Assembly: GCA_016933335.1 (NCBI GenBank)
Contig: JAFGBD010000023.1
Span: 1 to 64,000, forward strand
From: Bacteroidales bacterium
GTDB lineage: Bacteria > Bacteroidota > Bacteroidia > Bacteroidales > UBA10428
Direction: 5' to 3'
DNA: 64,000 nt
The number at the start of each line of letters is the position of its first letter. The first letter of the stretch is position 1. The position numbers and the translations under genes are program-made. This document shows, one piece after another, positions 22,122-53,895 of the stretch. Under the pieces are notes generated by a model. It had not been told where the DNA came from. It was given only the letters and a program-made list of their open reading frames with translations, and ran no database searches.

Positions 22122-24239
22122 TCAATCATCTTCAAATTCTTCGTCTTCCTCCTCTTCCCCGATTGTACCGATAATTCTGAATTCCGTTCTCCTGTTTTGT
22201 TCCCTGCCTTCAGGATTATCTGTGCCATCGGGATTCTTATTGGGAGCAACCGGAAATTCAGATCCGTATCCTTTGGCAATCAGTCGTCCGGGAGAAATAC
22301 CCTTGCCAATCAGGTAATTGATAACACTGTTTGCCCTGTCCTGTGACAATTGCATGTTATATCCGGTGTCTCCAATGCTGTCTGTATGTGCACCGATTTC
22401 AACAATGAACTCCGGTGCTTCCTTCAGCATGACCAGCAGGGTGGTGTCCAGCACATCTCTGGCTGTGGTTGTTAATTCGGCACTGTTGAATTCATAATAG
22501 ATATTTTCAAGCACAACAGGTTTATCTGTCAGTACATTAACCCATATAGGAGGCATTTCAATGGTATCGGAAAAATTAAAGAACTCGGTCGAAAGATACA
22601 GCTCACTTTTAAAATACTGAAATCCTGTCATTTTAAACTGGTAGTTCTGTTCAGGAATAAGATTGAAATAAAACCTGCCGTCATCTGCTGTTTTAAAGCT
22701 TTCTACAAAAACATAATCATTTGTTTCCCTGTCTTGCATATACAGTCCGATAGTGGCATCTTTCAACGGTTTGATGGTATCCGGGGGATTCATAAAATCG
22801 AAATTGGAAAGATCTCTCGTTCGCCCGTATTTGTCCTTTTCAAAGGGATAAATGGTTGCCGTTACAACGATTCTGATGAATTCATTCCATCTGTAATAAT
22901 AGATATCATCGCAACATGTTTCATCACTGAACCTGTTACCTCCCGGTCTGTTTGATACAAAGAAACCATCTTCACCATCCCGGCTTACCGTAAAATACAA
23001 GTCATCATAGCTGGAATTCAGGGGATATCCAGCATTCCTGATATTTGTCCATTTTCTTCTTGTGCCGAAAGCACTGAAAATATCGAGACCTCCCATTCCC
23101 GGCAGCCCGGTTGAGCTGAAATACATTGTATGGGAAGGAATGTCATAGAATGGTGTCATTTCATCTCCGGCGGTGTTGATTCTGGTACCCAGGTTTCTCA
23201 CTTTACTGTATATGTTTTTGCTGTCATTCCAGATCGTATACCATATGTCGAGGCCGCCTTTTCCTTCGGGCCTGTCAGATACGAAATAGATGATTTCATA
23301 ATCTCTCTTTTCCGTTCTTCCCAGTGCAGGCTGTGTCGATGTATGGTTAGGATCATTGATACCGGGGGGAAGCTTTTCGGGTTTTTGCCATGTATTGTTT
23401 ATCTTATGGCTGACATAGATTCCGCAAATGATTTTTCCCTGCCAGTTCTTTGCGCATCTGGTGAAATAGAATCGTTTTCCGTCTCTGGATAATACGCCAT
23501 TTCCTGTTTCAACACCCGGGATATTAATCGCATTCTGCATCAGCTCTCCGCCAATCCAGTCATGTTCATGTTTCCGGGCAATGTAAAACTGCCTGACGGG
23601 AATGGCAGTATCTTCATTCTCAGTGGTAAAATAAACCAGCGAGTCAACACGAAGGGAAGCATAAATGAATGTCGAATCATTTAGCGGAATGGGAGAAAGC
23701 TCAATATGAGGTCCGTTTACAGAGGAATTGAGGTTTTCAATGGAAACATTCAGCGGATTCTGCATGATTTTTTTTGCCGAATCACAGCCTTCAATTTCAA
23801 TTCTGGCCATCCTGCTGTAGGTTCTTGCATCTTTTTTATCCCTGTAGTTTTTTCTGAAATCTGTAAATGCTTCAATGGCTTCATCATAGTTGCCTGTTGA
23901 TTTCAGCATCTGTGCATAATAAAACTGCGAGAGGGGATATTTTGAACCTGCCCTCTGATAAACCTGCCTGTAAAGTACTTTGGCTTTTTCGTAATTTCTT
24001 GCCGAACGGTGCAGATCAGCCAGTATGTAATTGACATCCTGGTTATTGTCTCTGATTTCGTGATACCTTTCATAGAAAAAAATAGCGGTATAGATATCGC
24101 CTGCCCTGGCGGCGCTTTTTCCGAATCTTTTGAGCTGACCAGGGCCCAGTTCATCCACATATTCCATTTGTGCCGAAGTCACTCCGGCAATAAGAACAAA
24201 TAATACGGCCAAAAGAAGCTTCCTGCTAAAATCTTTCAC
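22122..24239 (-). CDS. PorE-like protein: TPR, beta-propeller, regulatory domain and OmpA C-domain
   Basis: The 705-residue protein has a signal peptide (to about Ala22), TPR-like helices (about 35-150), a WD40/PD40-type propeller (about 165-450, with YFTRCAKN, YFVSDRPEGKGGLDIWY and FFVSNRPGG), a carboxypeptidase-regulatory-like domain (about 490-565), and an OmpA domain (about 580-695, with AHTDSIGD and NRRTEFRI). This order is that of T9SS component PorE, which is thought to tether the machinery to peptidoglycan. The sequence alone cannot tell PorE from the many paralogues of this layout. Its start overlaps the end of the PorP/SprF-like gene by 14 bases. Confidence 0.85.
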   Translation of the reverse strand: MKDFSRKLLLAVLFVLIAGVTSAQMEYVDELGPGQLKRFGKSAARAGDIYTAIFFYERYHEIRDNNQDVNYILADLHRSARNYEKAKVLYRQVYQRAGSKYPLSQFYYAQMLKSTGNYDEAIEAFTDFRKNYRDKKDARTYSRMARIEIEGCDSAKKIMQNPLNVSIENLNSSVNGPHIELSPIPLNDSTFIYASLRVDSLVYFTTENEDTAIPVRQFYIARKHEHDWIGGELMQNAINIPGVETGNGVLSRDGKRFYFTRCAKNWQGKIICGIYVSHKINNTWQKPEKLPPGINDPNHTSTQPALGRTEKRDYEIIYFVSDRPEGKGGLDIWYTIWNDSKNIYSKVRNLGTRINTAGDEMTPFYDIPSHTMYFSSTGLPGMGGLDIFSAFGTRRKWTNIRNAGYPLNSSYDDLYFTVSRDGEDGFFVSNRPGGNRFSDETCCDDIYYYRWNEFIRIVVTATIYPFEKDKYGRTRDLSNFDFMNPPDTIKPLKDATIGLYMQDRETNDYVFVESFKTADDGRFYFNLIPEQNYQFKMTGFQYFKSELYLSTEFFNFSDTIEMPPIWVNVLTDKPVVLENIYYEFNSAELTTTARDVLDTTLLVMLKEAPEFIVEIGAHTDSIGDTGYNMQLSQDRANSVINYLIGKGISPGRLIAKGYGSEFPVAPNKNPDGTDNPEGREQNRRTEFRIIGTIGEEEEDEEFEDD

Positions 24240-25254
24240 ACGGTATAGAATAACTGTTTAATACTGTACTGATGCTCCTGTAAGCAAATGATAGTTCAAA
24301 GGCACCCCTGTTGCCTGTTGCAGCCTTCAGGCCTGAAATGTTATAATCGTAACACAATAAAATGTCAATTCTCCCTATGGTCACGCCTCCCGCTATTGAA
24401 AGGGCATCTGTATTCTTGAAAAACTCATCGCGGAAATATAGTCCGGCTGCCAGCTCCTTTAATGCCGAACGTTTTTCAAAGAGTCTGAAACCGATATTTG
24501 TTCCCATTACCATCTCACTGGCGGCTTTACGGTTCATATAGATAAAGGCCGGATGAAAATATACTTTTTCCGAGAATCTTATGATGGTGCTGCCGTGAAA
24601 ATGATAACGGACAGGCAATCTTTCTCCGGCATCGAAAAATGATTCGCTGGGGAAATTAATATGAGATAATGATATTCCCACCTGGGGTTCAAAGATCTTT
24701 ACGGCGGATTTCCAGATAACACCGATGTTGATATCCGGATAACTTGATTTTTCTGAAGGATTTCCGTTATCGAATGTTCCGGTGTTGAAGTTCCAGTCTG
24801 ACGGATAAGTGACATCGCCGCCTCCGAATGAAAGAAATGCATAGCCTGCCTGCAATCCGAAACGGAACAGGTTTTTATTAAGTGATTTTTCATATGCCAG
24901 TGAAAGATAGAATTTATTTGCCGTAAGTCCGATTGCACCCGAGTTATCATTTATTATACAGATGCCTCCGTCAATCTTCTGGTTATAAATGTAAAAATGC
25001 ATATCAAAACCTACTGATGCCGTGGTAAACGGCTCAGATATTGCCCGCCACTGATCGCGGTAATTTCCTGTGATACGCCAGTTGCCGTCGAAGTTTCCGG
25101 TATTTGCAGGATTAATATACAGGGGTGAATTGTTGAAAAGGGTAAAATGAATATCCTGGGACAAACCTGCTGAGAAGGATATACTGAATAATATGAACAG
25201 GGAGTGAATCCTTAAAATACCTTTCAGATGATTATGTCCGTGTATTGAATTCAT
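24226..25254 (-). CDS. PorP/SprF family outer-membrane protein
   Basis: This 342-residue outer-membrane protein opens with a signal peptide and the family-typical segment SQDIHFTLFNNSPLYINPANTGNFDGNWRI-like block (about 32-62). A barrel follows, with IINDNSGAIGLTANKFYLSLAYEKSLN and a terminal part around 320-342. In T9SS, PorP/SprF proteins bind the C-terminal domain of type B cargo; SprF serves SprB. The gene is divergent from a 1455-residue protein with exactly such a domain, across 148 bases, so the two are likely partners. It is first in an operon with the PorE-like gene and the M43-like gene. Confidence 0.9.
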   Translation of the reverse strand: MNSIHGHNHLKGILRIHSLFILFSISFSAGLSQDIHFTLFNNSPLYINPANTGNFDGNWRITGNYRDQWRAISEPFTTASVGFDMHFYIYNQKIDGGICIINDNSGAIGLTANKFYLSLAYEKSLNKNLFRFGLQAGYAFLSFGGGDVTYPSDWNFNTGTFDNGNPSEKSSYPDINIGVIWKSAVKIFEPQVGISLSHINFPSESFFDAGERLPVRYHFHGSTIIRFSEKVYFHPAFIYMNRKAASEMVMGTNIGFRLFEKRSALKELAAGLYFRDEFFKNTDALSIAGGVTIGRIDILLCYDYNISGLKAATGNRGAFELSFAYRSISTVLNSYSIPCERF

Positions 25255-25402
25255 ATACGCTGGAACATTGTTCAGGCCTTAAAATAATTTATTTTTATAA
25301 TAATGTAAAAATGAGTTGTTGACAATAAATAAATTAATTTACATCATTTTTTCTTATAATTATATTGTAAAGTAATAAATTTAACGGATTATTGATCGCA
25401 CC

Positions 25403-28400
25403 ATGAAGGTATTCTGTGCATTTATTTCGTTAATAACTTTTTTGCTGCTACCCTTCAATGCTGCCAGACCGCAGGTAAATGCCGGCTTTACCATGAACAT
25501 ACAGGCAGGTTGTTCTCCCCTTAAAGTAAGTTTTATTAATCAGAGTACCGGACCTGACCCGCTGACCTACATGTGGTACCTGGGAGCCCAGCAGGGAACA
25601 TCAACACTAAAGGATCCGCAGGCAACCTATGTCAATCCGGGTGCATACAATGTTAAACTTGTTGTAACGCATGGTGCCGAGATCGATTCTGTTACAAAGA
25701 CCATAGTCGTTTTCAGGAATCCGGTTGCAAGGTTTACCTCTCCGAGACTGGGATGTGCTCCTTTTGAGGTCCATTTTACCGATCTCAGTATTGAAGGTGA
25801 CGGACAGATAGTAAGCTGGAACTGGGACTTCCGGACAGGAGAAACCGATACATCACAGAATCCGGTCAAGACATTTACCATGCCCGGGCAATATGATATT
25901 TTTCTTGAAGTTACTGATGTATTTGGTTGCAAAGGCAGCATCGATACCCTTAATTACATCGATGTGGTTAATCCTCCTGTGGCGGATTTTTCCATAACAC
26001 CTGCTTCTGCCTGTCAGGTTCCTGCAACATTCACATTCACTAATCAATCGACTGTACAGGGCAGTGTCAGCTATGACTGGGATTTTGGTGACGGATCACA
26101 GTCGCAGGAGGAGGATCCTGTTAAAACTTATACTGAATTCAACGATTACCAGGTTCAGCTGACGGTTACAAGTGACCACGGATGTTCGGACGATACCGTG
26201 AAAACTGCTTTTGTCAGTGAAGTCACAGCTTCGGGTATTCTCAGGCAAAATGGAAGAACACTTTCGGTTGATGATACCATCTGCACAGGAATGATTGATT
26301 TTTCAAATACATCAGCCGGGACCGACTTTGTCAGGTGGGATTTTGGTGACGGGGTGACCACTGCCAGTAAATTTGGTTTTCATCAATATCTTGCATCAGG
26401 CAGCTATGTTGTTACCCTTGTTGGATCACCCGGTACCGAATGTGCTGATACTTTCCGGTGGAACCTGTATGCCGAGGATATAAAGGCCGATTTTGACATG
26501 AGTACCGATTTTTCATGTATATCACCTGTAATGGTCAGTTTTACCGATAAATCGGTCAATGCTGTCAAATGGGAATGGACTTTCTATGATAACGGGAAAG
26601 CTTTTACACAAGATGCTTCCCATACTTTCTATCTTCCTCATGATACGGATGAATATTTAATCAACGGGGCAGTGCCTTTTGTAACATCGCTCGAGGTGGA
26701 AAGTCCCGGCGGCTGTAAAAGCACCATGCAGAAAACATTTACCATAAAAAAGCCCACTGCACTCTTCGGTGTTGATAAAGTTCAGGGCTGTATCCCTTTA
26801 GCAGTTAAATTCAGTGACCGGAGCCTGTCTGATTCCGCCATAACGAACTGGGAGTGGATTTTCAGTGATACGCAGAAGTCTTCCGGTTCGGTTGATTCAG
26901 CGGTTTTTACCTACGATACCCACGGATCATTTCCTTCAAAGCTGGTGATCACCAACAGTGCGGGTTGTACAGACACTTCTTTTATTATCATGATCAATGC
27001 AGGTAAAAAGCTTTTCCCTGATTTCACTTTAAGCCAGGATAATGTTTGCCAGAATGAAGAAATTACCCTGTCCGATAACACACCTGAATCGTGGTTGATA
27101 CAAAGCTGGCACTATCAGGCAGGGGGAATTGACGTCGGGTCTCTGCCCGGTGAGCCCGATCCCCGGTGGACCGTACATGCCGACACTGGTTATCTTGATG
27201 TGAAACTTGAGGTTTCTTACAATGGCTGTATTTCAGATACCGTAAAAAAAGATGCAATATACAATAAAGGCCCGTATGCTCTCTATAGTTATGCATTTGA
27301 TTGTGAGACACCCTATGATTATACTTTTACCAATCATTCGAAAGGTCTTGAGACCTTTCAGTGGAGTTTTGGAGATGACAGCATCAATACCACAACAGCC
27401 AGTCCTGAACATACATACTCAGCAGAGGGTAACTATACGGTTGTACTGGATGTTACAAAAGGGAGTTGCTCTGATAGCTACCGGCAGGTCCTGCCTGTCA
27501 GGATGCCGAAAGCCATCATCAATACCGATACCATGGCCTGTGCACAGAGCATACTGCAGCTTACAGGCAAAGAATCTTACAACCTGGTTGACTATTGTTA
27601 TGAAAAATACTTATGGGATTTCGGTGACGGCACACCGGGAAAAAGGACCAGTCTGGATACCATACAGCACATCTACCGGAACAGGGGCAGGTATCAGCTT
27701 AAGCTTACAACCCGGTTTGATAACGGTTGTACTGATTCAGCGGACATTAATGTGAACGTGTACCAGCCATATGCAGGATTTATGGCAGATACTTTACTGG
27801 GATGTTCTCCTTTCATCGTAAATTTCACTGATACATCCCGGTCGGATGTTCATCCGTTAGAGGAGTGGCACTGGACTTTCGAACCGGCTGAAGACAGTAT
27901 ATACAATTCAATGATTCCTGTGGTAAGTCACTGGTTTAACAATCCCGGAGTATATCAGGTGATCCTGCAAATCACCGATACACTGGGTTGCATTGGCGAA
28001 GCCTCCGCCACCATCTCTACCGCAAATCCCGATGCCGTATTTTTTGCCGAAGATCTCCGGATATGTGCCGGAGAGGCGGTTCGGTTGTATTATACACTCC
28101 AGAGCATTGACAGCCTGATATGGGACTTTGATGACGGTACTTTTTCCCGTGATGATTCGAGACCCGTATCACATATCTATCCTGACTCGGGAAGCTTCAA
28201 CCCGTCACTGACAATATACAGGTTTGGCTGCTCTGATTCATTCACGCTTCAGGATCCGGTTGAGGTGCAGCTCGCAAGTGCTTATTTTGCCGTATCTGAC
28301 AGTTTCTGGAACTGTTATCCCCATGAGATAACCTTTACCCATCAGGCAGAAGGACAGGACATTGTTGCAGGGGTCTGGAACTTTGGCTATGGCAATACCC

Positions 28401-29770
28401 CGCCATCGGAATATGCCGGAATTAAAAAATTCAATTACCCCAAACCGGGAATATACACTGCCGGTTTAAGCATACTGACTTCATTCGGATGCACCGACAC
28501 CTTTGAGCGTGACATTGAAATATCAGGACCGGTCGGTGATTTTACTGCCTCGAAATACGATGCCTGCCGCTTTGATGAGATCACCTATATCATTAGGGAT
28601 ACAAGTAATATATTTGATTTTGAATGGGATATGGGAGACGGTACTACCTTTCTCAAAGGTGATACGGTAACCCATATGTATCATGATGTGGGACCGTTTT
28701 ATCCCAAGCTTCTTTTATATGGTGATTCGGGTAATTGCAGACCACCGGCTGTGGTTGATACCATTTACATTTATGAGGTGATCGCGGACTTCGGGGTACC
28801 TGATACCGGGTTATGCAGTTTCTATGATATCCTGCTCGAAAACAGCTCTGAAGGCAATGATATAAACAGCTGGAATATCAATGATTCTATCTTCACCAGT
28901 GATATCAATCCTGTACTGAATTTGCAGCATGGCACCTACCTGGTTTCCTTGATGGTGATGAATGACATTGGTTGTTCGGATACAACGGAAAAAAGCATCA
29001 CCATTCATCCGTTGCCGGTCATTCAAATGATGGAAGATACCTTTATCTGTGAAGGTGATGAAATCATCATACTTGTAACCGGTGGCGATGAGATCACCTG
29101 GTCTCCTGCCACAGGTTTAAGCTCGGTAAATTCTTATTCACCTTCTGCGTCACCTGGTGTGACCACTACTTATACCGCTGTGGTAAGAGACACAGAAACC
29201 GGTTGCCTGAACAGTGATGACATAAAGATAGTGGTACAGCAGTACCCGGAGATCACTCTGCATCCGGCTGATACCACGATTCTTATTGGAGAAACAATAA
29301 ACGTGTCAGCTGATTCGCTGGGGGATTGTACATATTTCTGGACGTCGGTGCCAACAGATACATCACTGAGCTGTTTGAACTGCGCATCACCGGTTATAAG
29401 GCCTCTTGAAAACACATTATATACCCTCGAAGTTGCTGACACCAACCATTGCTTCAGTGAAAAGTATTACATCAATGTACAGGTAGATGAAAAGTATTCG
29501 CTTGATCTGCCGGCTGCTTTTACACCGACAGGTGATCCGGAAAATGCAGTTGTGTATGTGAAAGGATGGGGGATTATGCGCCTGGTAGAGTTCAGGATCT
29601 ATAACCGTTACGGCAATGAAGTATTTTATACCGATGATCTGAATCAGGGTTGGGACGGTACATACAAGGGCAAACTGCAGAATATAGATTCCTATGCTTA
29701 CACTGTAACTGCTGAGATGTGGAACGGACAGCTGATGACAAAGAAGGGAACGATTACTTTACTTAGATGA
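25403..29770 (+). CDS. Giant PKD-repeat surface protein with type B (gliding-motility-type) T9SS C-terminal domain
   Basis: The 1455-residue protein has a signal peptide (to about 24) and a long array of PKD/Ig-like domains, recognised by repeated W-x-F/W-G-D-G-x and tyr-asp-xx-G-x-Y-x-V-x-L motifs such as WDFGDGSQS, VRWDFGDGV, LWDFGDGTP and WDMGDGTTF. The last about 85 residues form a type B sorting domain (AAFTPTGDPENA, EFRIYNRYGNEVFYT, QGWDGTYKGK, and a terminal TLLR), the TIGR04131 pattern. It should be secreted by T9SS and displayed at the surface as an adhesin-like filament. It is divergent from a PorP/SprF-like gene. The promoter in the 148-base gap could not be pinned down. Confidence 0.9.
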   Translation: MKVFCAFISLITFLLLPFNAARPQVNAGFTMNIQAGCSPLKVSFINQSTGPDPLTYMWYLGAQQGTSTLKDPQATYVNPGAYNVKLVVTHGAEIDSVTKTIVVFRNPVARFTSPRLGCAPFEVHFTDLSIEGDGQIVSWNWDFRTGETDTSQNPVKTFTMPGQYDIFLEVTDVFGCKGSIDTLNYIDVVNPPVADFSITPASACQVPATFTFTNQSTVQGSVSYDWDFGDGSQSQEEDPVKTYTEFNDYQVQLTVTSDHGCSDDTVKTAFVSEVTASGILRQNGRTLSVDDTICTGMIDFSNTSAGTDFVRWDFGDGVTTASKFGFHQYLASGSYVVTLVGSPGTECADTFRWNLYAEDIKADFDMSTDFSCISPVMVSFTDKSVNAVKWEWTFYDNGKAFTQDASHTFYLPHDTDEYLINGAVPFVTSLEVESPGGCKSTMQKTFTIKKPTALFGVDKVQGCIPLAVKFSDRSLSDSAITNWEWIFSDTQKSSGSVDSAVFTYDTHGSFPSKLVITNSAGCTDTSFIIMINAGKKLFPDFTLSQDNVCQNEEITLSDNTPESWLIQSWHYQAGGIDVGSLPGEPDPRWTVHADTGYLDVKLEVSYNGCISDTVKKDAIYNKGPYALYSYAFDCETPYDYTFTNHSKGLETFQWSFGDDSINTTTASPEHTYSAEGNYTVVLDVTKGSCSDSYRQVLPVRMPKAIINTDTMACAQSILQLTGKESYNLVDYCYEKYLWDFGDGTPGKRTSLDTIQHIYRNRGRYQLKLTTRFDNGCTDSADINVNVYQPYAGFMADTLLGCSPFIVNFTDTSRSDVHPLEEWHWTFEPAEDSIYNSMIPVVSHWFNNPGVYQVILQITDTLGCIGEASATISTANPDAVFFAEDLRICAGEAVRLYYTLQSIDSLIWDFDDGTFSRDDSRPVSHIYPDSGSFNPSLTIYRFGCSDSFTLQDPVEVQLASAYFAVSDSFWNCYPHEITFTHQAEGQDIVAGVWNFGYGNTPPSEYAGIKKFNYPKPGIYTAGLSILTSFGCTDTFERDIEISGPVGDFTASKYDACRFDEITYIIRDTSNIFDFEWDMGDGTTFLKGDTVTHMYHDVGPFYPKLLLYGDSGNCRPPAVVDTIYIYEVIADFGVPDTGLCSFYDILLENSSEGNDINSWNINDSIFTSDINPVLNLQHGTYLVSLMVMNDIGCSDTTEKSITIHPLPVIQMMEDTFICEGDEIIILVTGGDEITWSPATGLSSVNSYSPSASPGVTTTYTAVVRDTETGCLNSDDIKIVVQQYPEITLHPADTTILIGETINVSADSLGDCTYFWTSVPTDTSLSCLNCASPVIRPLENTLYTLEVADTNHCFSEKYYINVQVDEKYSLDLPAAFTPTGDPENAVVYVKGWGIMRLVEFRIYNRYGNEVFYTDDLNQGWDGTYKGKLQNIDSYAYTVTAEMWNGQLMTKKGTITLLR

Positions 29771-45726: not shown

Positions 45727-46716
45727 TCATCGCTTTTTTTTGTCATATACGGGACAGGGCAGTGCATGCATCTCTTTGCGGCATAACCGCCAGGAAAGCA
45801 TCAGTTCATGTGAGCCGTAACTTTGAAAGGTAAGGGGATTGAAACCTGACAGGAAAGCATAACTTGCCTGGAAATTGCCATGGCGATATCCTGCAAAGGG
45901 AATAAGTGACAGAGACCTGCCCGGGAACCTGTCAAGGTTATGGCGGTACGACAGGCCAAACCAGAACTTTTGCCTGTAGGAGATATTGATACCGATATCA
46001 ATCTGTTTGTGCAGCGATTCATTCATCTTGATGACCATTGAAGGCTCGAATATAAATACGTCCGAACGGCTGTTTATTTTTTGTCCCGCAGTTAAGAAGT
46101 AATGCCTTCCTTTATAAACCGGTTCTGCTGATGTCACATTTGCCAGTGGCGGCAACAGATCAGCCACCGTGATTCCGGCATAAAATCCGGGATGATAGAG
46201 GGCAATGCCCAGGTTGAAAGCAGGACTTACGGCGTTTATCCTGTTTCCGCCGATAACAGGATCATAATCAATGTTTCCAAAACCGGTTTGATCCAGAATA
46301 TATTGTCTGGCCATGGCTTCTATACCCATTGAAAGAGCTGTTTTACCTTTGCCGGGCAGCCTTACATGAAAAGCGTAAGTGCCGCCCAGGTTCATATGCT
46401 GATAGGCTCCGTTCACGTCACGGCAGAGCCGGATACCCAGTCCGTGCCATGTATCAGTGCTTCCGTGCGGCAGGTAGAATCTCCCGTATGCATTTAGTAC
46501 CTGTGTGTTGGGGGCATCTTTGATACCCAGCCATTGGTGATGGTCTGCCAGGCTGATGACACGGCAGTTCTCACGGCCGCGAAAAGCCGGGTTAAGCAGG
46601 GTGTTGTCGTGTAGGTACAGGTCGAATACCGGCAGCTCCTGGGCAGCAAGCCTGGCAATAAATACTCCCATGACTGAAATCAACAGCCATATCCTGCTAC
46701 CTGACAACTGACACAT
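45727..46716 (-). CDS. PorP/SprF family outer-membrane protein
   Basis: This 329-residue product starts with a signal peptide (MCQLSGSRIWLLISVMGVFIARLAAQ) and the family block DLYLHDNTLLNPAFRGRENCRVISLADHHQW (about 31-60). Alternating barrel strands follow (YAGITVADLLPPLANV, WFGLSYRHNLDRFPG). I chose the ATG at 46716, which overlaps the end of the upstream cargo gene by 20 bases. The frame opens further to 46824, but those residues are not signal-like. As partner of the type B cargo just upstream, it would help display or anchor it, in parallel to SprF and SprB. Confidence 0.85.
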   Translation of the reverse strand: MCQLSGSRIWLLISVMGVFIARLAAQELPVFDLYLHDNTLLNPAFRGRENCRVISLADHHQWLGIKDAPNTQVLNAYGRFYLPHGSTDTWHGLGIRLCRDVNGAYQHMNLGGTYAFHVRLPGKGKTALSMGIEAMARQYILDQTGFGNIDYDPVIGGNRINAVSPAFNLGIALYHPGFYAGITVADLLPPLANVTSAEPVYKGRHYFLTAGQKINSRSDVFIFEPSMVIKMNESLHKQIDIGINISYRQKFWFGLSYRHNLDRFPGRSLSLIPFAGYRHGNFQASYAFLSGFNPLTFQSYGSHELMLSWRLCRKEMHALPCPVYDKKKR

Positions 46717-48418
46717 ATCCTGTAATTGGTTTGGAATTGTCTTCAAAGGTGATGATATACCAGTATGAATCGGCCTTAACCGGTTTGCCCAGATAAGTTC
46801 CATCCCATCCTGATTCTTCGCCACGGTATGATATTATTTTCTTGCCGTTCCGGTCGTAAATGGTGATAACGGCTCCGGGATGGATCCTGAAGTATGGTAT
46901 CTCCCAGCGATCATTAAATCCATCGCCGTTGGGTGTAATAAACCTGGGAATGTCAAGCGAAATCTCTATGTTAATTTGAGCTGATGCTTTGCATCCGTTA
47001 GTATCTGTCACTTCAACCAGGTATGTTCCGGGTTCCGTCACAGTTATTTCTTCGTCGTTTGCACCGGTAGACCAGGCATAATTTCTGAAGCCGTAACCGG
47101 GACTCAGGATTAAAGATGCTCCAGGCACCAGACTGGTATCATTTCCCAGGCTGATAACAGGATTGTTAAATACAACCACATCTTTACAGACCGTTTGCTG
47201 TGTTGGCAGGCCCTCATCGATTGCCAGCGATACATTGTAAATTCCGGGTATGTCATATGTTACTTTAGGGGGATCTCTTTCTGTTGAATATGGCAGCGAA
47301 GCATTGCTGCAGGGTTGAAAAAAGAGTCTTGTCAGCGTATTGTTGATATTGCCTGTAAGCATGTAAAGCCTGTCATTTTCCCTGAAGATATTTGATATCC
47401 CGTGTGGCTGATAAAGATCTCCTACATTTCCAAGCGATTCAAATACAGGCATACCGGTAATGCCATCTGTGAATTCAAACCTTACCAGCTCGTTGGAATA
47501 ATGATTGGCGACAAATCCGTAAATCTGTTCGCAGTCACGGATGATGGTCAGATCAAAAGGCGAATACAGATCTCCTGAGCCACCCAGATTGATGCCGACG
47601 GGAGTATTCAGCAGTGATCCTGAAAAATCAAGTCTTGAAAGGGTATTCGATCCGAAATTGGTTATAAATACATACCAGTTGCCGTTATCGAAAACAGGCT
47701 GTATGCCGCATGGTTTGTTAAGGTTACCGATATTTCCCAGGTTTTCGGCAACCGGAGGGTTTGCCAGTCCGCCCGAAAACACAAAACGCGTGATGGTGCT
47801 TGTGGTGTAATTGACAGTCAGTCCTGTCCAGACTGTCCCTTCAGGGTACATGTACAGATCAATGGGATAAGATAATTCCCCCAGGTTTCCCAGGTTTGTT
47901 GTTGCAGGCAGGTTACCCGGTGATGTACCAAAATCCAGCCTGATGATGGATGAGCTGCTGCCAATTCCTCCGACCATGAATCCGTACCAGCTGCCTGAGT
48001 GCTCTATTACCTGTATTCCCTCCAAATGGTCGATACCGGATACAGAGCCCAGGTTAACCGTAACCGGAGGATCATTCAGCGTACCTGCAAAATAATTACG
48101 CGTAAGGGTTCCGTCCACATGGTTGGTAATAAAGGCATAATATCCTTCGCCGGTACGGACAACCGAGATGAATGCGGGTCCGTTGACCTGGCCTGTTGCA
48201 TCCATGTTTTCACCCAAAGGCATGTAATCCAGACTGGCCGAGCAAAAATTCCAGAACCAGGTCCGGGCAGTCGGGGAAAGATTCACAACCTGCATGGAGT
48301 CGCGGATACAAACGGTGTCAGGCACAGAGAAAGCAGCCTGGGAATAAGCGTCTGCGGTTATAAAAAGAAATCCGGTAGTATATATAACTACATGCTTAAT
48401 TTGGTTCCGCGTGATCAT
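46697..48418 (-). CDS. Secreted beta-propeller protein with type B T9SS C-terminal domain
   Basis: The 573-residue protein has a signal peptide (to about Gln27), a short PKD-like stretch, and a run of repeats of about 47 residues around NLGxxGxLxxPxxxxxxxxxGxxYxFVxNxxxNxLxRxxF that looks like a propeller (about 75-390). An Ig-like segment (NPVISLGNDTSLVPG, VEVTDTNGC) follows. The last about 90 residues are a type B sorting domain (PRFITPNGDGFNDRWEIPYF, ITIYDRNGKKIISY, GWDGTYLGKPVKADSYWYI, ending VSVVR). The start ATG overlaps the stop of the interrupted upstream frame as ATGA. The PorP/SprF-like gene follows with an overlap. Confidence 0.87.
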   Translation of the reverse strand: MITRNQIKHVVIYTTGFLFITADAYSQAAFSVPDTVCIRDSMQVVNLSPTARTWFWNFCSASLDYMPLGENMDATGQVNGPAFISVVRTGEGYYAFITNHVDGTLTRNYFAGTLNDPPVTVNLGSVSGIDHLEGIQVIEHSGSWYGFMVGGIGSSSSIIRLDFGTSPGNLPATTNLGNLGELSYPIDLYMYPEGTVWTGLTVNYTTSTITRFVFSGGLANPPVAENLGNIGNLNKPCGIQPVFDNGNWYVFITNFGSNTLSRLDFSGSLLNTPVGINLGGSGDLYSPFDLTIIRDCEQIYGFVANHYSNELVRFEFTDGITGMPVFESLGNVGDLYQPHGISNIFRENDRLYMLTGNINNTLTRLFFQPCSNASLPYSTERDPPKVTYDIPGIYNVSLAIDEGLPTQQTVCKDVVVFNNPVISLGNDTSLVPGASLILSPGYGFRNYAWSTGANDEEITVTEPGTYLVEVTDTNGCKASAQINIEISLDIPRFITPNGDGFNDRWEIPYFRIHPGAVITIYDRNGKKIISYRGEESGWDGTYLGKPVKADSYWYIITFEDNSKPITGYVSVVR

Positions 48419-48516
48419 TGTTGAATGATAACTCTTTTTACACTGCTTATATTGCCTTTCATATCTTTTGTTTCCATTATCAGTATATAACAACTATTCT
48501 CACGTCTGTTTGTATA
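48415..48516 (-). pseudogene. In-frame tail of the giant protein's sorting domain behind the amber codon
   Basis: Directly after the TAG at 48517-48519 the same frame stays open for 33 codons. It contains NSCYILIMETKDMKG and ends SSVKRVIIQQ, which matches the end of a type A sorting domain (GxYxYxIxxxxxxxxxKxVxxQ). The frame ends in TGA (48415-48417), overlapping the next gene's ATG (48416-48418). A TGG to TAG change (Trp to stop) is the simplest explanation. A sequencing error or readthrough cannot be excluded. Confidence 0.8.
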
Positions 48517-51500
48517 CTATTCAACAGCATGCACTCCCTCGGAATGCGGAACACTGGTGATCCGGTTGATTTCACAGCCGTTCATCCCGAAGATCCTGAA
48601 CTGCACCTCGTTTGCAGTTTCGTCAAGTATATAGCGGATGACCAGGTGATCGCGGAACGGATTCGGATAAGCTGTGAGCAACCCGGTATGATCCATGTTA
48701 TCTTCGAGTGTACTGATACCCTGTCCGCCTTCAAATTCAAGGCTGTTATTCAATTCAAATACTTCCCTGAGGTCATCCCCGTCATCAATAATGGCAACGA
48801 ACCTGGTTATTTCGGCATTTGGCAGGATATAGTCCGCATGAAGTATAACCTCCTGATCTGTTGCAAAGGAGTCGATTTCCATCTCGGCAAGTGGCAGCTC
48901 GGCAATGCCTTGACCGACCACCGGATATACTCTTAAAAATATTTTTTTCGCAGGAATTCCCCTGTTTACAGCTGTGACCTCTATCCTGGCAGTATTGCCG
49001 TCAATTTCCGAAACAGCTGCATAAAGCTGGAAATCGGGTATGGAAAGCATTACTTTTTCTTCATCTGAATAACTGTATGATGCGGTTATCGAAGTTCCTT
49101 CATAGGCAACATCGGATGATGCAATCAGGTTCATCAGTCCGGATTTTTCATTGATATCGTGCAGCCTGAAAGGCAGGTAAACCGGTTTTGATTCACCCGG
49201 AACAACGGCTCCCAGTGACACAAGAATGGCATTATTGTATACTGTTGCCCCTGCTGGCAGGCTGTCTTCCATGATTTCATAGAAATCTCCCGGATATACG
49301 GTAACAACTGTATTGGAAGAAATATCATTTCCTGTGTTGGTAACCGTCAGACGTGTCAGTATATAGACGTCCTGATCCGGCTCAAACATCAGGGTATCTT
49401 CAATACGGTAACCGTTTACTTTATAGATCCGGTTCGACAGCGTGATCCTGGGTCCGACAGGAAAGACATACAGCGGACCGCCCAAAAATTCAAGATCCTC
49501 CCCGAATGCTGACTGGTAACCCAGTAACTCATTGTTGACGATTCTCATCTGTTCTCCGGCATTATAGCTGTTCACAGCCACCCTTTCAAGCAGGTACAGG
49601 AATACCGAATCGGGATGCGGAAAATCTGAAAAACGCGAAAGATCAATGATTTCTGCACCACCTTCGTTTGTAGCCGGCAGTATGCTGGTGATTGATTCAA
49701 AATCATCAGGTATAATTTCTTCAGCCGACCATTTAACTTCACCGGTAAATGACAATCCTGTGGTGCCTTGTATGCTGAGCGATTCCAATTGTGACTGTCC
49801 GATTACAAAATTCACCAGACCGGATACTGCCCCGTTTTCATCTTTATCAACGATGCTGAACTGTGCTTCAGGCACATCACACGAATAGGTCCCGTGATCT
49901 TCGCCGGTGTAATAGACCCGGCTGGTCTGCATGTCGAAGTCCATCTTGTATATTCCACGGGAGAGCGATTCATCAAGGCTTAAAAGAAAGATAAAATAAG
50001 CCCGTCTTGATGGCTGCAATAATGGTAACACGTTGCCGTGCTTTATCAGCACTTCCCCTTCGGGCTGGTTAAAACGCCATCCGGCCCCGAATGTGCCGAT
50101 GTCGTCACCGGGAACAAGCGGGCGGGGATATGCAACATAGCTCATGGCAACCGATGTGTTTCCAAGTTCAGGTGAAATCACGGGTGTAAGCGTTGTATTG
50201 ATCCATCTGTCGTCGGTACCGTTCATCACTTCGATCTTCACTTCAAGAAAAGTGCCGCTGATGGTTTTCGGATAGGCTGAAAGCCCGGGTATCGACGGAT
50301 CAGGATCAGGAATAAGCGTAATGGTTATATGATCATAATCCGGATCGATGAGGGTGGTCATATCCGGATTGGGGAGTATCAGGCTGCAGGGGTCTTTTCC
50401 GCCTGCAAATGTTGTGACCGATGCTTCGCCAAATCCATGCGACAGGTGATAAGGATCGTACCGGGAGTCGAAGCGGTGAGGCTCGTTCTCATCGGTGATG
50501 ACATGCCGCAGATAAACCGTATCATTACCATATTTTACACTGGAAGGTATCACTTCGGAGCTGACTGAAATGTCATCTCCAATGGAGTTAGCTGATAACA
50601 CATGCGAAAAGATCACCCATGGCGAGCCGCCAAAGATCTCTTCCACAACCAGTACTCCCCCCTTGCTGATATCAAGGGAACCTTCCCGCCCTCTGCCTTC
50701 GTAACTGGCATGTATCCGGATATGTGTTTTCCCTGGTTTTTCAAAGAAATCATCCCCGTAGGTATTATCTGTACCATCTGACCAGCCCGATTTAACCATC
50801 CCGTAAATATCATCCTGAAACGGAACGGCAGGTTCATCCGGATATTCTTCACCATCTCCCGGCATGAAAGCATCGTGCAGAAAACCTGTTGACGAGCTGA
50901 AGCGGTCGCCCCGGTCATCAATCCAGTCATCGGTATCGTCAGAATTATCATCATCAAGTGACGGGGGGATCAATAACTGGGGAATGTAAACATGGTATTC
51001 GAAAGGATCTTCCCAGATCTCTATGGCATTCGCCGTGTTCGGATTGTCAATCCACCGGCTGAAAGGCATGCCGTCAATCTCCACGATCGAATCGAGGTTG
51101 TAACTTCCGTCACTGTATCGGGGCAGGGTGATGGAGTATCCTCCCATACCCTTGGGGATATCATAGATGAAGTAACCGAACACACCGTCGCCGTATGGAT
51201 CAATCCCGTCAATGGCTTCTGACGGATCATTGAAGTCGACATCGTACCCGACATTTCTGATCCAGTAATATGAGTATTCGGTTGTGGCGTCAATATCAAA
51301 GGTCAGCAACGCTTTATCGTGCGAAGGTAAATAATCGAGTTTATTGCCCAGTGTATCCTGTATCAGGAAGTTGTTTGACAGGTATTCGAACTGGAGCGGA
51401 TTGGGCAGGGGAGCGTAATAGGTATACGTGGTGCGGATGGGTGTTATACGGTCTTCCTCAAAGATGGTCTCATAGCAAATGTCTGAATACATCGATTGTG

Positions 51501-53895
51501 AAGGAACCGGATTGTACATATCGATTTCCTCACCGCCCAGCGATACCACTGCGATGAATTCATTGTGTGGTTGCGGCACTGTCCCGGCGCAGCTGTCAGT
51601 GGGCAAAAGATGATAACCGGTTGCTGCCGTGTCAATAAAGGTATAACCTTCGTAATTGCCTATGCGCTGGTAGATGAACTGTTTCCAGATGACCTCTCCG
51701 TTTTCATCGCGCTCCATCCAGTGTGTCCAGCTTGTATCGGCAAGATCCGGACTTTCGACGTCGGGGGAATACGGATAGAACATACCCGGGATCGGACCGG
51801 GAACCGAATCACAGGCATATCCCACACCGGCTGCCATTTTTACCAGGTCAGGCGGATCGATCCATAATTCATAAGAGCAGTATGGGTCGAAGTACTGGTA
51901 TCCTTTTACTTCGCCGATGTTCCATGTTACCTTCCATACCCTGATTTCATCTCCCGGCTCTTCGATGTCGATGGTCCCGTCGCCATCTGTATCCTGGGCC
52001 CTGGTGCCGTCATGATCGATATCTTCATATACTATCTCATCAAATCCTGCTGAAAGGTGCGTCCATGGATTTGCCCAGTAAACCTCTTCTTCTGTGATGG
52101 TATATCCTTTCGGATAGATGGAAGAGGTATCGAGCCATGCATCAGGCTTGCCGTCACTGTCCATGTCAAATTCGGGCGCAGATTCCAGGTTGCTGCCCCG
52201 AAGCACGTCGATATATTTGCCGCCAGGAGTCTTCAGGATGGGAATGTTAAGTGACCGGTCGCTCCAGTAAAACGGGACATCTTTGGGAATATACTGGGTA
52301 TAAACCACATTTTCGGCAGGTGTTCTCTGCTTGTTCTCCATGATCATGAACACCTTGAAAGGCTGGTATTCAAGTCCGAGGAAGTTTTTCCAGTTGACAT
52401 CGGTATCTGCAAAAATCCGTGCGCTGAACAACGGTTCCGTATAACATCGATACATTGAAAATTTACCTGTTGTTGTTTCCGGTGAAGGATAGGAGACGAC
52501 AGAAACCGAAGCCGGCAGGTATTTATTGTTAACGAGGTAGCCGTCAACCTGTTCATGCACCGGATCATCCGGATCGGGACTGGCCAGCCGGTAGATGATT
52601 CCGACTTCGGAAAAGGGCTGGACGGAAATGCCGTAAATGGTGAGTGCATGATCATCTAAGCTGGTTGTACCGGGTGATGTAACCACTCCGGCAAATTGAT
52701 AATAATCACTGATATTCTCTGTGACGGTGATGTTTTCGATGACAGATCCGGTAAGATTCCTGACAGCTATCCTGACATCAAAGGTATCTTTCCTGTCAAA
52801 AGAAACGGCATTTTTACCGGCAACTATCTGCGGCGGAAGCACATTCTCCAGTGATCTGCTCACATCGACACGGTCTGACATGGCATACATCAGCATGTTT
52901 AATGTCCATTGCAGCTGCCGCTTACCTGTTCCTTCAGCAAATCCGCCGGCAGTGGGCAGGCCGAGATTGCAGATGATTTGTCCCCCGCCCGGCAGGGCCA
53001 TTTCAAAAATAACCGGACGGTCATCGGCAGCAGCACGGGCAATCATATGGATACCACCGGCATTGACCATTGGTACGGTACCGGAATACAGTTTATTTCC
53101 TGCATCTGCCGAGTTGAATGCAAGGGGACTGGTGTCGTCGTCAAGGGCAATATCTATCAGGCTTTCTGTGCCGCTGTTAACGGAATTGCCGAAATCTACC
53201 GAAGAGGAAGCCAGGTATCCGAGTTTTTCCAGCAGGTATACTGCATTTCCTTCGGCATATATTGTCGATCCTTTGTTTAAAAATTCATCCAGACGGCTTT
53301 TAAGAAAGGGAGCCTGCGCGGCTACCTGATCGATGTAATATGCCCCGTCTTCTCCGTTAAAGGCAAATGAAGGGATGATCAGTATCCTGACCGAATCGGA
53401 TATGCCTTTGTCATTCAGATCATCTTCATTGAGAGTCAGAAGGATATCGGAGTAGAGAAAGGTTTCAAACAACTGCCTGAAATACATTGTTTCCCAGGTG
53501 ACCGTGTAATCGCTGACTTTGACATTGCTGCAGAAAACCGCGATTCTGCCGGCTTGCCGGTTGAAGTGGACGGCACGGTGCGAAACAGACTTCCAGTCAT
53601 AACCGGGAGCAGCGGTAACAGTAAGTCCGGCAAAGGATGAAGGCAGCCCGGCAGGCAGCACAAAGCTTCCTTTTGATGTTCCGCCAGTTATCCAGTAGGA
53701 TGAGTGTTCCCCGTATTCCTTAAAAAGGGTAGAGGATGACTGTTCATGAAATCCATCATCGGAAACTGCAAGCACAGCCTTGTATGCTTTCAGAAAATCT
53801 GTTTGACCGGAGTTGACCTGCAGAACAACAGGATCCTGAGTGAAGGCAGACTGTATAAGAACAGCAGCTGCCATAAAGGTAGTCAGTAGTTTCAT
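48517..53895 (-). CDS. Giant T9SS surface protein, sorting domain cut by an amber stop
   Basis: The 1792-residue protein has a signal peptide (MKLLTTFMAAAVLIQSAFTQ) and an N-terminal part with a GATase-like segment (VRILIIPSFAFNGEDGAYYIDQ, about 195-250). Long Ig-like/DUF11-type domains follow, with acidic calcium-binding-like runs (DTDGDGTIDIEEPGDE, MDSDGKPDAW). Near the end are the first two thirds of a T9SS type A sorting domain (AYPNPFRDHLVIRYILDE, RIFGMNGCEINRI). The frame stops at TAG (48517-48519) after HSEGVHAVE, where homologous domains have a Trp. The missing end follows in frame (see 48415-48516). I chose the ATG at 53895, which starts a signal peptide; 53970 adds 25 residues. The function is unknown; adhesion or matrix is likely. 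Confidence 0.82.
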   Translation of the reverse strand: MKLLTTFMAAAVLIQSAFTQDPVVLQVNSGQTDFLKAYKAVLAVSDDGFHEQSSSTLFKEYGEHSSYWITGGTSKGSFVLPAGLPSSFAGLTVTAAPGYDWKSVSHRAVHFNRQAGRIAVFCSNVKVSDYTVTWETMYFRQLFETFLYSDILLTLNEDDLNDKGISDSVRILIIPSFAFNGEDGAYYIDQVAAQAPFLKSRLDEFLNKGSTIYAEGNAVYLLEKLGYLASSSVDFGNSVNSGTESLIDIALDDDTSPLAFNSADAGNKLYSGTVPMVNAGGIHMIARAAADDRPVIFEMALPGGGQIICNLGLPTAGGFAEGTGKRQLQWTLNMLMYAMSDRVDVSRSLENVLPPQIVAGKNAVSFDRKDTFDVRIAVRNLTGSVIENITVTENISDYYQFAGVVTSPGTTSLDDHALTIYGISVQPFSEVGIIYRLASPDPDDPVHEQVDGYLVNNKYLPASVSVVSYPSPETTTGKFSMYRCYTEPLFSARIFADTDVNWKNFLGLEYQPFKVFMIMENKQRTPAENVVYTQYIPKDVPFYWSDRSLNIPILKTPGGKYIDVLRGSNLESAPEFDMDSDGKPDAWLDTSSIYPKGYTITEEEVYWANPWTHLSAGFDEIVYEDIDHDGTRAQDTDGDGTIDIEEPGDEIRVWKVTWNIGEVKGYQYFDPYCSYELWIDPPDLVKMAAGVGYACDSVPGPIPGMFYPYSPDVESPDLADTSWTHWMERDENGEVIWKQFIYQRIGNYEGYTFIDTAATGYHLLPTDSCAGTVPQPHNEFIAVVSLGGEEIDMYNPVPSQSMYSDICYETIFEEDRITPIRTTYTYYAPLPNPLQFEYLSNNFLIQDTLGNKLDYLPSHDKALLTFDIDATTEYSYYWIRNVGYDVDFNDPSEAIDGIDPYGDGVFGYFIYDIPKGMGGYSITLPRYSDGSYNLDSIVEIDGMPFSRWIDNPNTANAIEIWEDPFEYHVYIPQLLIPPSLDDDNSDDTDDWIDDRGDRFSSSTGFLHDAFMPGDGEEYPDEPAVPFQDDIYGMVKSGWSDGTDNTYGDDFFEKPGKTHIRIHASYEGRGREGSLDISKGGVLVVEEIFGGSPWVIFSHVLSANSIGDDISVSSEVIPSSVKYGNDTVYLRHVITDENEPHRFDSRYDPYHLSHGFGEASVTTFAGGKDPCSLILPNPDMTTLIDPDYDHITITLIPDPDPSIPGLSAYPKTISGTFLEVKIEVMNGTDDRWINTTLTPVISPELGNTSVAMSYVAYPRPLVPGDDIGTFGAGWRFNQPEGEVLIKHGNVLPLLQPSRRAYFIFLLSLDESLSRGIYKMDFDMQTSRVYYTGEDHGTYSCDVPEAQFSIVDKDENGAVSGLVNFVIGQSQLESLSIQGTTGLSFTGEVKWSAEEIIPDDFESITSILPATNEGGAEIIDLSRFSDFPHPDSVFLYLLERVAVNSYNAGEQMRIVNNELLGYQSAFGEDLEFLGGPLYVFPVGPRITLSNRIYKVNGYRIEDTLMFEPDQDVYILTRLTVTNTGNDISSNTVVTVYPGDFYEIMEDSLPAGATVYNNAILVSLGAVVPGESKPVYLPFRLHDINEKSGLMNLIASSDVAYEGTSITASYSYSDEEKVMLSIPDFQLYAAVSEIDGNTARIEVTAVNRGIPAKKIFLRVYPVVGQGIAELPLAEMEIDSFATDQEVILHADYILPNAEITRFVAIIDDGDDLREVFELNNSLEFEGGQGISTLEDNMDHTGLLTAYPNPFRDHLVIRYILDETANEVQFRIFGMNGCEINRITSVPHSEGVHAVE

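What the first reader, a model, noticed from the sequence alone, without database searches (positions are those of the whole stretch)
48415..48540. Amber codon inside a T9SS sorting domain, with the frame intact behind it and coupled to the next gene
The sequence shows a TAG in frame (48517-48519) after HSEGVHAVE. The same frame then stays open for 33 codons, gives YILIMETKDMKG and SSVKRVIIQQ as a type A sorting-domain end would, and stops in TGA overlapping the next ATG (ATGA at 48415-48418). Such an arrangement is very unlikely by chance. In related domains a Trp often follows at this place, so TGG to TAG is the simplest change. Either the giant protein has lost surface sorting (a phase- or strain-variable loss), the stop is read through to make a small anchored fraction, or the base call is wrong.
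Basis: partly seen in the sequence, partly recalled or inferred. Interest (0 to 1): 0.78.

Follow-up and report, generated by a model that had tools for sequence, protein, structure and literature searches.

The report
Nonsense codon truncating a secretion tag
A single stop codon cuts off the last third of the export tag of a very large predicted cell-surface protein in an uncultured Bacteroidales bacterium; relatives have an intact tag, so this is most likely a recent loss-of-function change, which is ordinary in bacterial genomes.

Summary
On the minus strand a TAG (48517-48519) ends the 1,792-residue protein inside its type A T9SS sorting domain. The same frame then runs 33 codons to a TGA that overlaps the next ATG. 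Of 21 ortholog tails aligned, 15 have Trp there and none a stop. Read through, the domain is predicted as a seven-strand beta-sandwich (pLDDT about 95); the stop lies in strand 5 and removes strands 6-7, the part reported to carry the T9SS signal. TAG is an ordinary stop here: other window genes use it, RF1 is present, no CUA-anticodon tRNA was found, and no structure or repeat surrounds it. The tail still shows codon-level constraint, so the stop is young, although an invariant Gly has become Ser and profile scores are low. Best reading: a recent nonsense substitution, fixed or polymorphic, that leaves the protein unsorted, probably periplasmic. A wrong or minority base in the short-read assembly cannot be excluded without reads. 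Programmed readthrough is unsupported. Low novelty.

The parts
48520..53895 (-). body of the giant protein: signal peptide, about 1,700-residue body, first strands of the type A sorting domain (likely start ATG at 53895)
48517..48519 (-). in-frame TAG; the column is Trp in 15 of 21 orthologs and TGG in the three nearest
48418..48516 (-). 33 codons behind the stop that match the end of the sorting domain (strands 6 and 7 in the read-through model)
48415..48417 (-). TGA that ends the original frame, overlapping the ATG of the next gene (48418-48416)
46697..48418 (-). next gene: 573-residue protein with an intact type B sorting domain (TIGR04131, CHU_C); conserved neighbour in relatives
45727..46824 (-). 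PorP/SprF-family outer-membrane protein, likely partner of the type B protein (ORF start probably too early)

Best explanation
A recent nonsense substitution (Trp codon to TAG), fixed or polymorphic in this population, has truncated the type A T9SS sorting domain of a giant Sec-exported protein. Shown: the stop, the homologous tail, intact relatives, an intact-looking T9SS in the genome. Inferred: the protein is made without its last two domain strands, is therefore not recognised by the translocon, and stays in the periplasm or is degraded; the downstream type B protein and its PorP/SprF partner are unaffected as proteins.
For: Same-genus ortholog and others read Trp at the column and continue in frame. 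The read-through domain is predicted as a seven-strand sandwich, with the stop at residue 68 in strand 5; the structure comparison includes solved T9SS sorting domains (PorU 6za2, mirolase 8qb1, NucA 8glk), though tied with generic Ig/FN3 folds. The genome holds SprA, PorU and about 110 type A sorting domains over the cut-off, so the missing tail is particular to this gene. The body shows no acceleration (184 changes unique to the window against 180 in the sister), and codon positions 1+2 of the tail (21/66 differing) fit constraint over most of the branch (P = 0.005 for a neutral tail along the whole branch): a young stop. Signs of early decay: Ser at the Gly invariant in 21 of 21 orthologs, 4 against 0 unique changes, 15.3 bits against 31.0 and about 24 for TIGR04183. 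Published: loss of two C-terminal residues keeps RgpB in the periplasm, and the last 22 residues of HBP35 (last two strands) carry the signal (PMC11285876, PMC4804311).
Against: No reads or second strain, so the base itself is not verified. The decay signs are weak: 4 against 0 is P = 0.06 one-sided, and one other sorting domain of this genome also has Ser at that Gly (L053). Apart from the stop the tail looks nearly normal.
Confidence: 0.68

Rival explanations
1. The base is wrong or is a minority strain variant picked by the assembler; most of the population encodes an intact sorting domain.
For: Body and tail look constrained; the genome is an 88-contig draft, from its contig overlaps a short-read metagenome assembly; no reads available.
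Against: Contig ends overlap by exactly 87 bases, so it is a short-read de Bruijn assembly, in which single wrong bases inside a 189-kb contig are uncommon (general knowledge); the two downstream genes are intact; the Gly to Ser change and low tail score point to some real relaxation.
Confidence: 0.17
2. The truncated protein is still useful: it works in the periplasm, or half a sorting domain is enough.
For: The 1,792-residue body has no other stop and evolves at the sister's rate.
Against: A recent stop gives the same pattern; published truncations of far fewer residues abolish secretion; no ortholog is built this way.
Confidence: 0.1
3. The stop is read through at some rate to make a small sorted fraction.
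For: The frame behind it is intact and homologous.
Against: No CUA tRNA among 42 tRNAs, RF1 present across a contig break, TAG ends five other window genes, no structure behind the stop (z = -0.5), no conservation of the stop.
Confidence: 0.05

Closest known systems
T9SS type A sorting domain (TIGR04183 / PF18962)
   Same: Position at the C-terminus, AYPNPF start motif, seven-strand sandwich in the read-through model; orthologs score at or above the cut-off
   Different: The open frame stops in strand 5; even read through with X at the stop it scores 15.3 bits (cut-off 23) and 20.6 (cut-off 27)
Laboratory C-terminal truncations of RgpB and PPAD sorting domains in P. gingivalis (PMC11285876, PMC4804311)
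   Same: Loss of the C-terminal part of a T9SS cargo's sorting domain
   Different: Here natural, larger (34 residues), in an uncultured bacterium; export was not tested
Ordinary nonsense-truncated gene (young pseudogene)
   Same: One stop, homologous sequence intact behind it, intact copies in relatives
   Different: Nothing distinguishing beyond the part of the protein that is lost

Membership tests
T9SS type A cargo | N-terminal Sec signal peptide | tested here: met
   MKLLTTFMAAAVLIQSAFTQ by inspection; no predictor was run
T9SS type A cargo | Complete C-terminal sorting domain above the curated score | tested here: not met
   As coded: 14.1 bits TIGR04183, 18.8 PF18962, matching only the first half; read through: 15.3 and 20.6. 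Orthologs L003 (31.0), L023 and L024 (about 24) pass TIGR04183
T9SS type A cargo | T9SS machinery in the genome | tested here: met
   SprA 2606 bits, PorU 1313 bits, about 110 TIGR04183 matches over the cut-off
T9SS type A cargo | Export and surface anchoring | not testable with these tools
   needs proteomics or a reporter
Stop codon readthrough / recoded TAG | Suppressor tRNA or loss of RF1 | tested here: not met
   42 tRNAs, none with anticodon CUA; RF1 present in two pieces at contig ends; genome 93% complete, so a missed tRNA is possible but unlikely
Stop codon readthrough / recoded TAG | Conserved stop or stimulatory element | tested here: not met
   no ortholog of 21 has a stop there; no structure
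Nonsense-truncated gene | Homologous coding sequence continues in frame behind the stop, intact in relatives | tested here: met
Nonsense-truncated gene | Base confirmed by independent reads or strains | not testable with these tools
   one genome per species held, no reads
Nonsense-truncated gene | Relaxed constraint behind the stop | tested here: inconclusive
   4 against 0 unique changes and loss of an invariant Gly, but codon positions still constrained

The most novel reading that the evidence does not exclude
The stop is a regulated or polymorphic switch that splits one giant protein into a major periplasmic form and a minor surface form, by readthrough or by a maintained strain mixture.
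Probability: 0.05. Interest if true: 0.55.

Novelty: new member of a known kind. Interest (0 to 1): 0.17.

Why it matters
If confirmed, it is a natural C-terminal truncation of a type A sorting domain in its fifth strand, in line with laboratory truncations, and a reminder that a profile search on the coded frame misses this protein as a T9SS cargo. It does not open a new question.

Tried and rejected
Reassigned TAG: rejected by stop usage, RF1 and tRNAs. RNA element for readthrough: z = -0.5. Phase-variation repeats or inversions: none of 14 bases or more around the site. A second, intact copy in the same genome: only one match. Two compensating frameshifts in the tail: considered because the tail looked short, dropped because it aligns without gaps to L003. 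Age of the stop from absence of further stops: no power (33-82% chance of none). PDB sequence search with the domain profile gave no convincing hit; Foldseek gave nothing below E = 0.001 and the structural ranking is tied among Ig-like folds. One alignment with the genome's own sorting domains had the window row in the wrong frame; only its other rows are used.

Full report
What is there. The minus strand carries a 1,792-residue frame that ends in TAG at 48517-48519, followed by 33 codons in the same frame and a TGA that overlaps the ATG of the next gene. The coordinates and peptides in the finding are exact. The frame's ORF start (53970) is an early TTG; ATG at 53895 begins a normal-looking signal peptide.

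Is it more than chance. The window lies in a 4.05-Mb, 88-contig genome. Full or partial orthologs were found in relatives of the same genus, family and order and in MAGs named as Ignavibacteria and Chlorobiota. I aligned 21 ortholog C-termini. The same-genus ortholog (L003/L020) has TGG at the column of the stop and a tail of exactly 33 residues; L023 and L024 also have TGG. Overall the column is Trp in 15, Gln, Leu, Phe or Tyr in the other 6, and a stop in none. So the 33 codons are the real end of a sorting domain.

What is lost. AlphaFold2 on the domain read through (9-sequence alignment) gives seven strands with pLDDT about 95: 15-18, 25-32, 36-45, 50-54, 62-69, 76-86, 91-100. The stop is residue 68, in strand 5, so strands 6 and 7 are lost. 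Structural alignment lists T9SS sorting domains (PorU, mirolase, NucA) at Z 9.3-10.1, but generic Ig and FN3 domains score the same, so the filing rests on sequence homology, not on the fold. Published work places the export signal in this part: removing two C-terminal residues holds RgpB in the periplasm, and the last 22 residues of HBP35, its last two strands, direct secretion (PMC11285876, PMC4804311). Loss of export is therefore expected, but was not tested.

The genome's secretion system. SprA and PorU are complete and about 110 TIGR04183 matches exceed the cut-off. Only one of those listed has a stop inside (C2:1974-2168, TAA), and it is a relic without an open gene in front of it. The loss is particular to single genes, not to the system.

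Is TAG a stop here. Five other window genes end in TAG, among them the next gene and a SusD-like gene. RF1 is present in two pieces at the ends of C87 and C62. ARAGORN on all 42 tRNA matches finds no CUA anticodon. The RNA behind the stop folds no better than shuffles. Readthrough is not needed and not supported.

How old is the stop. Between window and sister, the body differs at 28/19/58% of codon positions 1/2/3, the tail at 36/27/58%, the domain before the stop at 35/28/63%. If the tail had been free since the two lineages split, 21 or fewer differences of 66 at positions 1+2 would have P = 0.005; for half the branch 0.08, for a quarter 0.24 (a rough model). Unique changes in the body are 184 against 180. 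So the stop is young. Small signs of decay exist: Ser at the Gly that is invariant in 21 of 21 orthologs, 4 against 0 unique changes, weak profile scores. They are not decisive; one intact sorting domain of the same genome (L053) has Ser there too.

Could it be an error. Three pairs of contig ends overlap by exactly 87 bases, the mark of a k = 87 de Bruijn assembly of short reads. The sister contigs carry 'k87' names and appear to come from an Illumina/MegaHit project (PMC9040765). A random base error in such an assembly is unlikely; a minority strain allele is possible. Only reads can tell.

Surroundings. The next gene encodes a protein with an intact type B sorting domain and is followed by a PorP/SprF-family protein. 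Both follow the ortholog in L020 and L024, and the type B gene follows it in many others; it was not found beside the more distant homologs. Type B proteins are reported to bind PorP-like proteins for anchorage (PMC9143113). With the stop, translation ends about 100 bases before the next start; whether that lowers its translation is unknown.

Verdict. A correctly observed, homology-confirmed premature stop in a T9SS sorting domain, most likely a recent ordinary loss of function, with assembly or strain-mixture artefact as the main rival.

Noticed in passing
window 22122-29770: An OmpA/PorE-like protein (22122-24239), an outer-membrane-like gene in PorP/SprF position (24226-25254, not tested by profile) and a divergent 1,455-residue PKD-rich protein with a type B sorting domain (25403-29770) look like a PorE-PorP-type B cargo cassette.
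   Followed up: partly
L091 (G000:C2:1974-2168): Relic type A sorting domain with an internal TAA and no open reading frame in front of it.
   Followed up: partly
L020:13494-13660: Extra sequence between the sister's giant gene and the signal peptide of its next gene, containing AAAGAGGCTGTCTTAAAAG; a similar AAAGAGGCTGTGTAAA follows the ortholog in L007. May be remains of a small mobile repeat.
   Followed up: no
L112: The ortholog in G073 carries a longer C-terminus (about 300 extra residues) with a different sorting-domain end.
   Followed up: no
G000:C87 end and G000:C62 end: prfA is split across a contig break, so automated annotation of this genome may report RF1 as fragmentary.
   Followed up: partly
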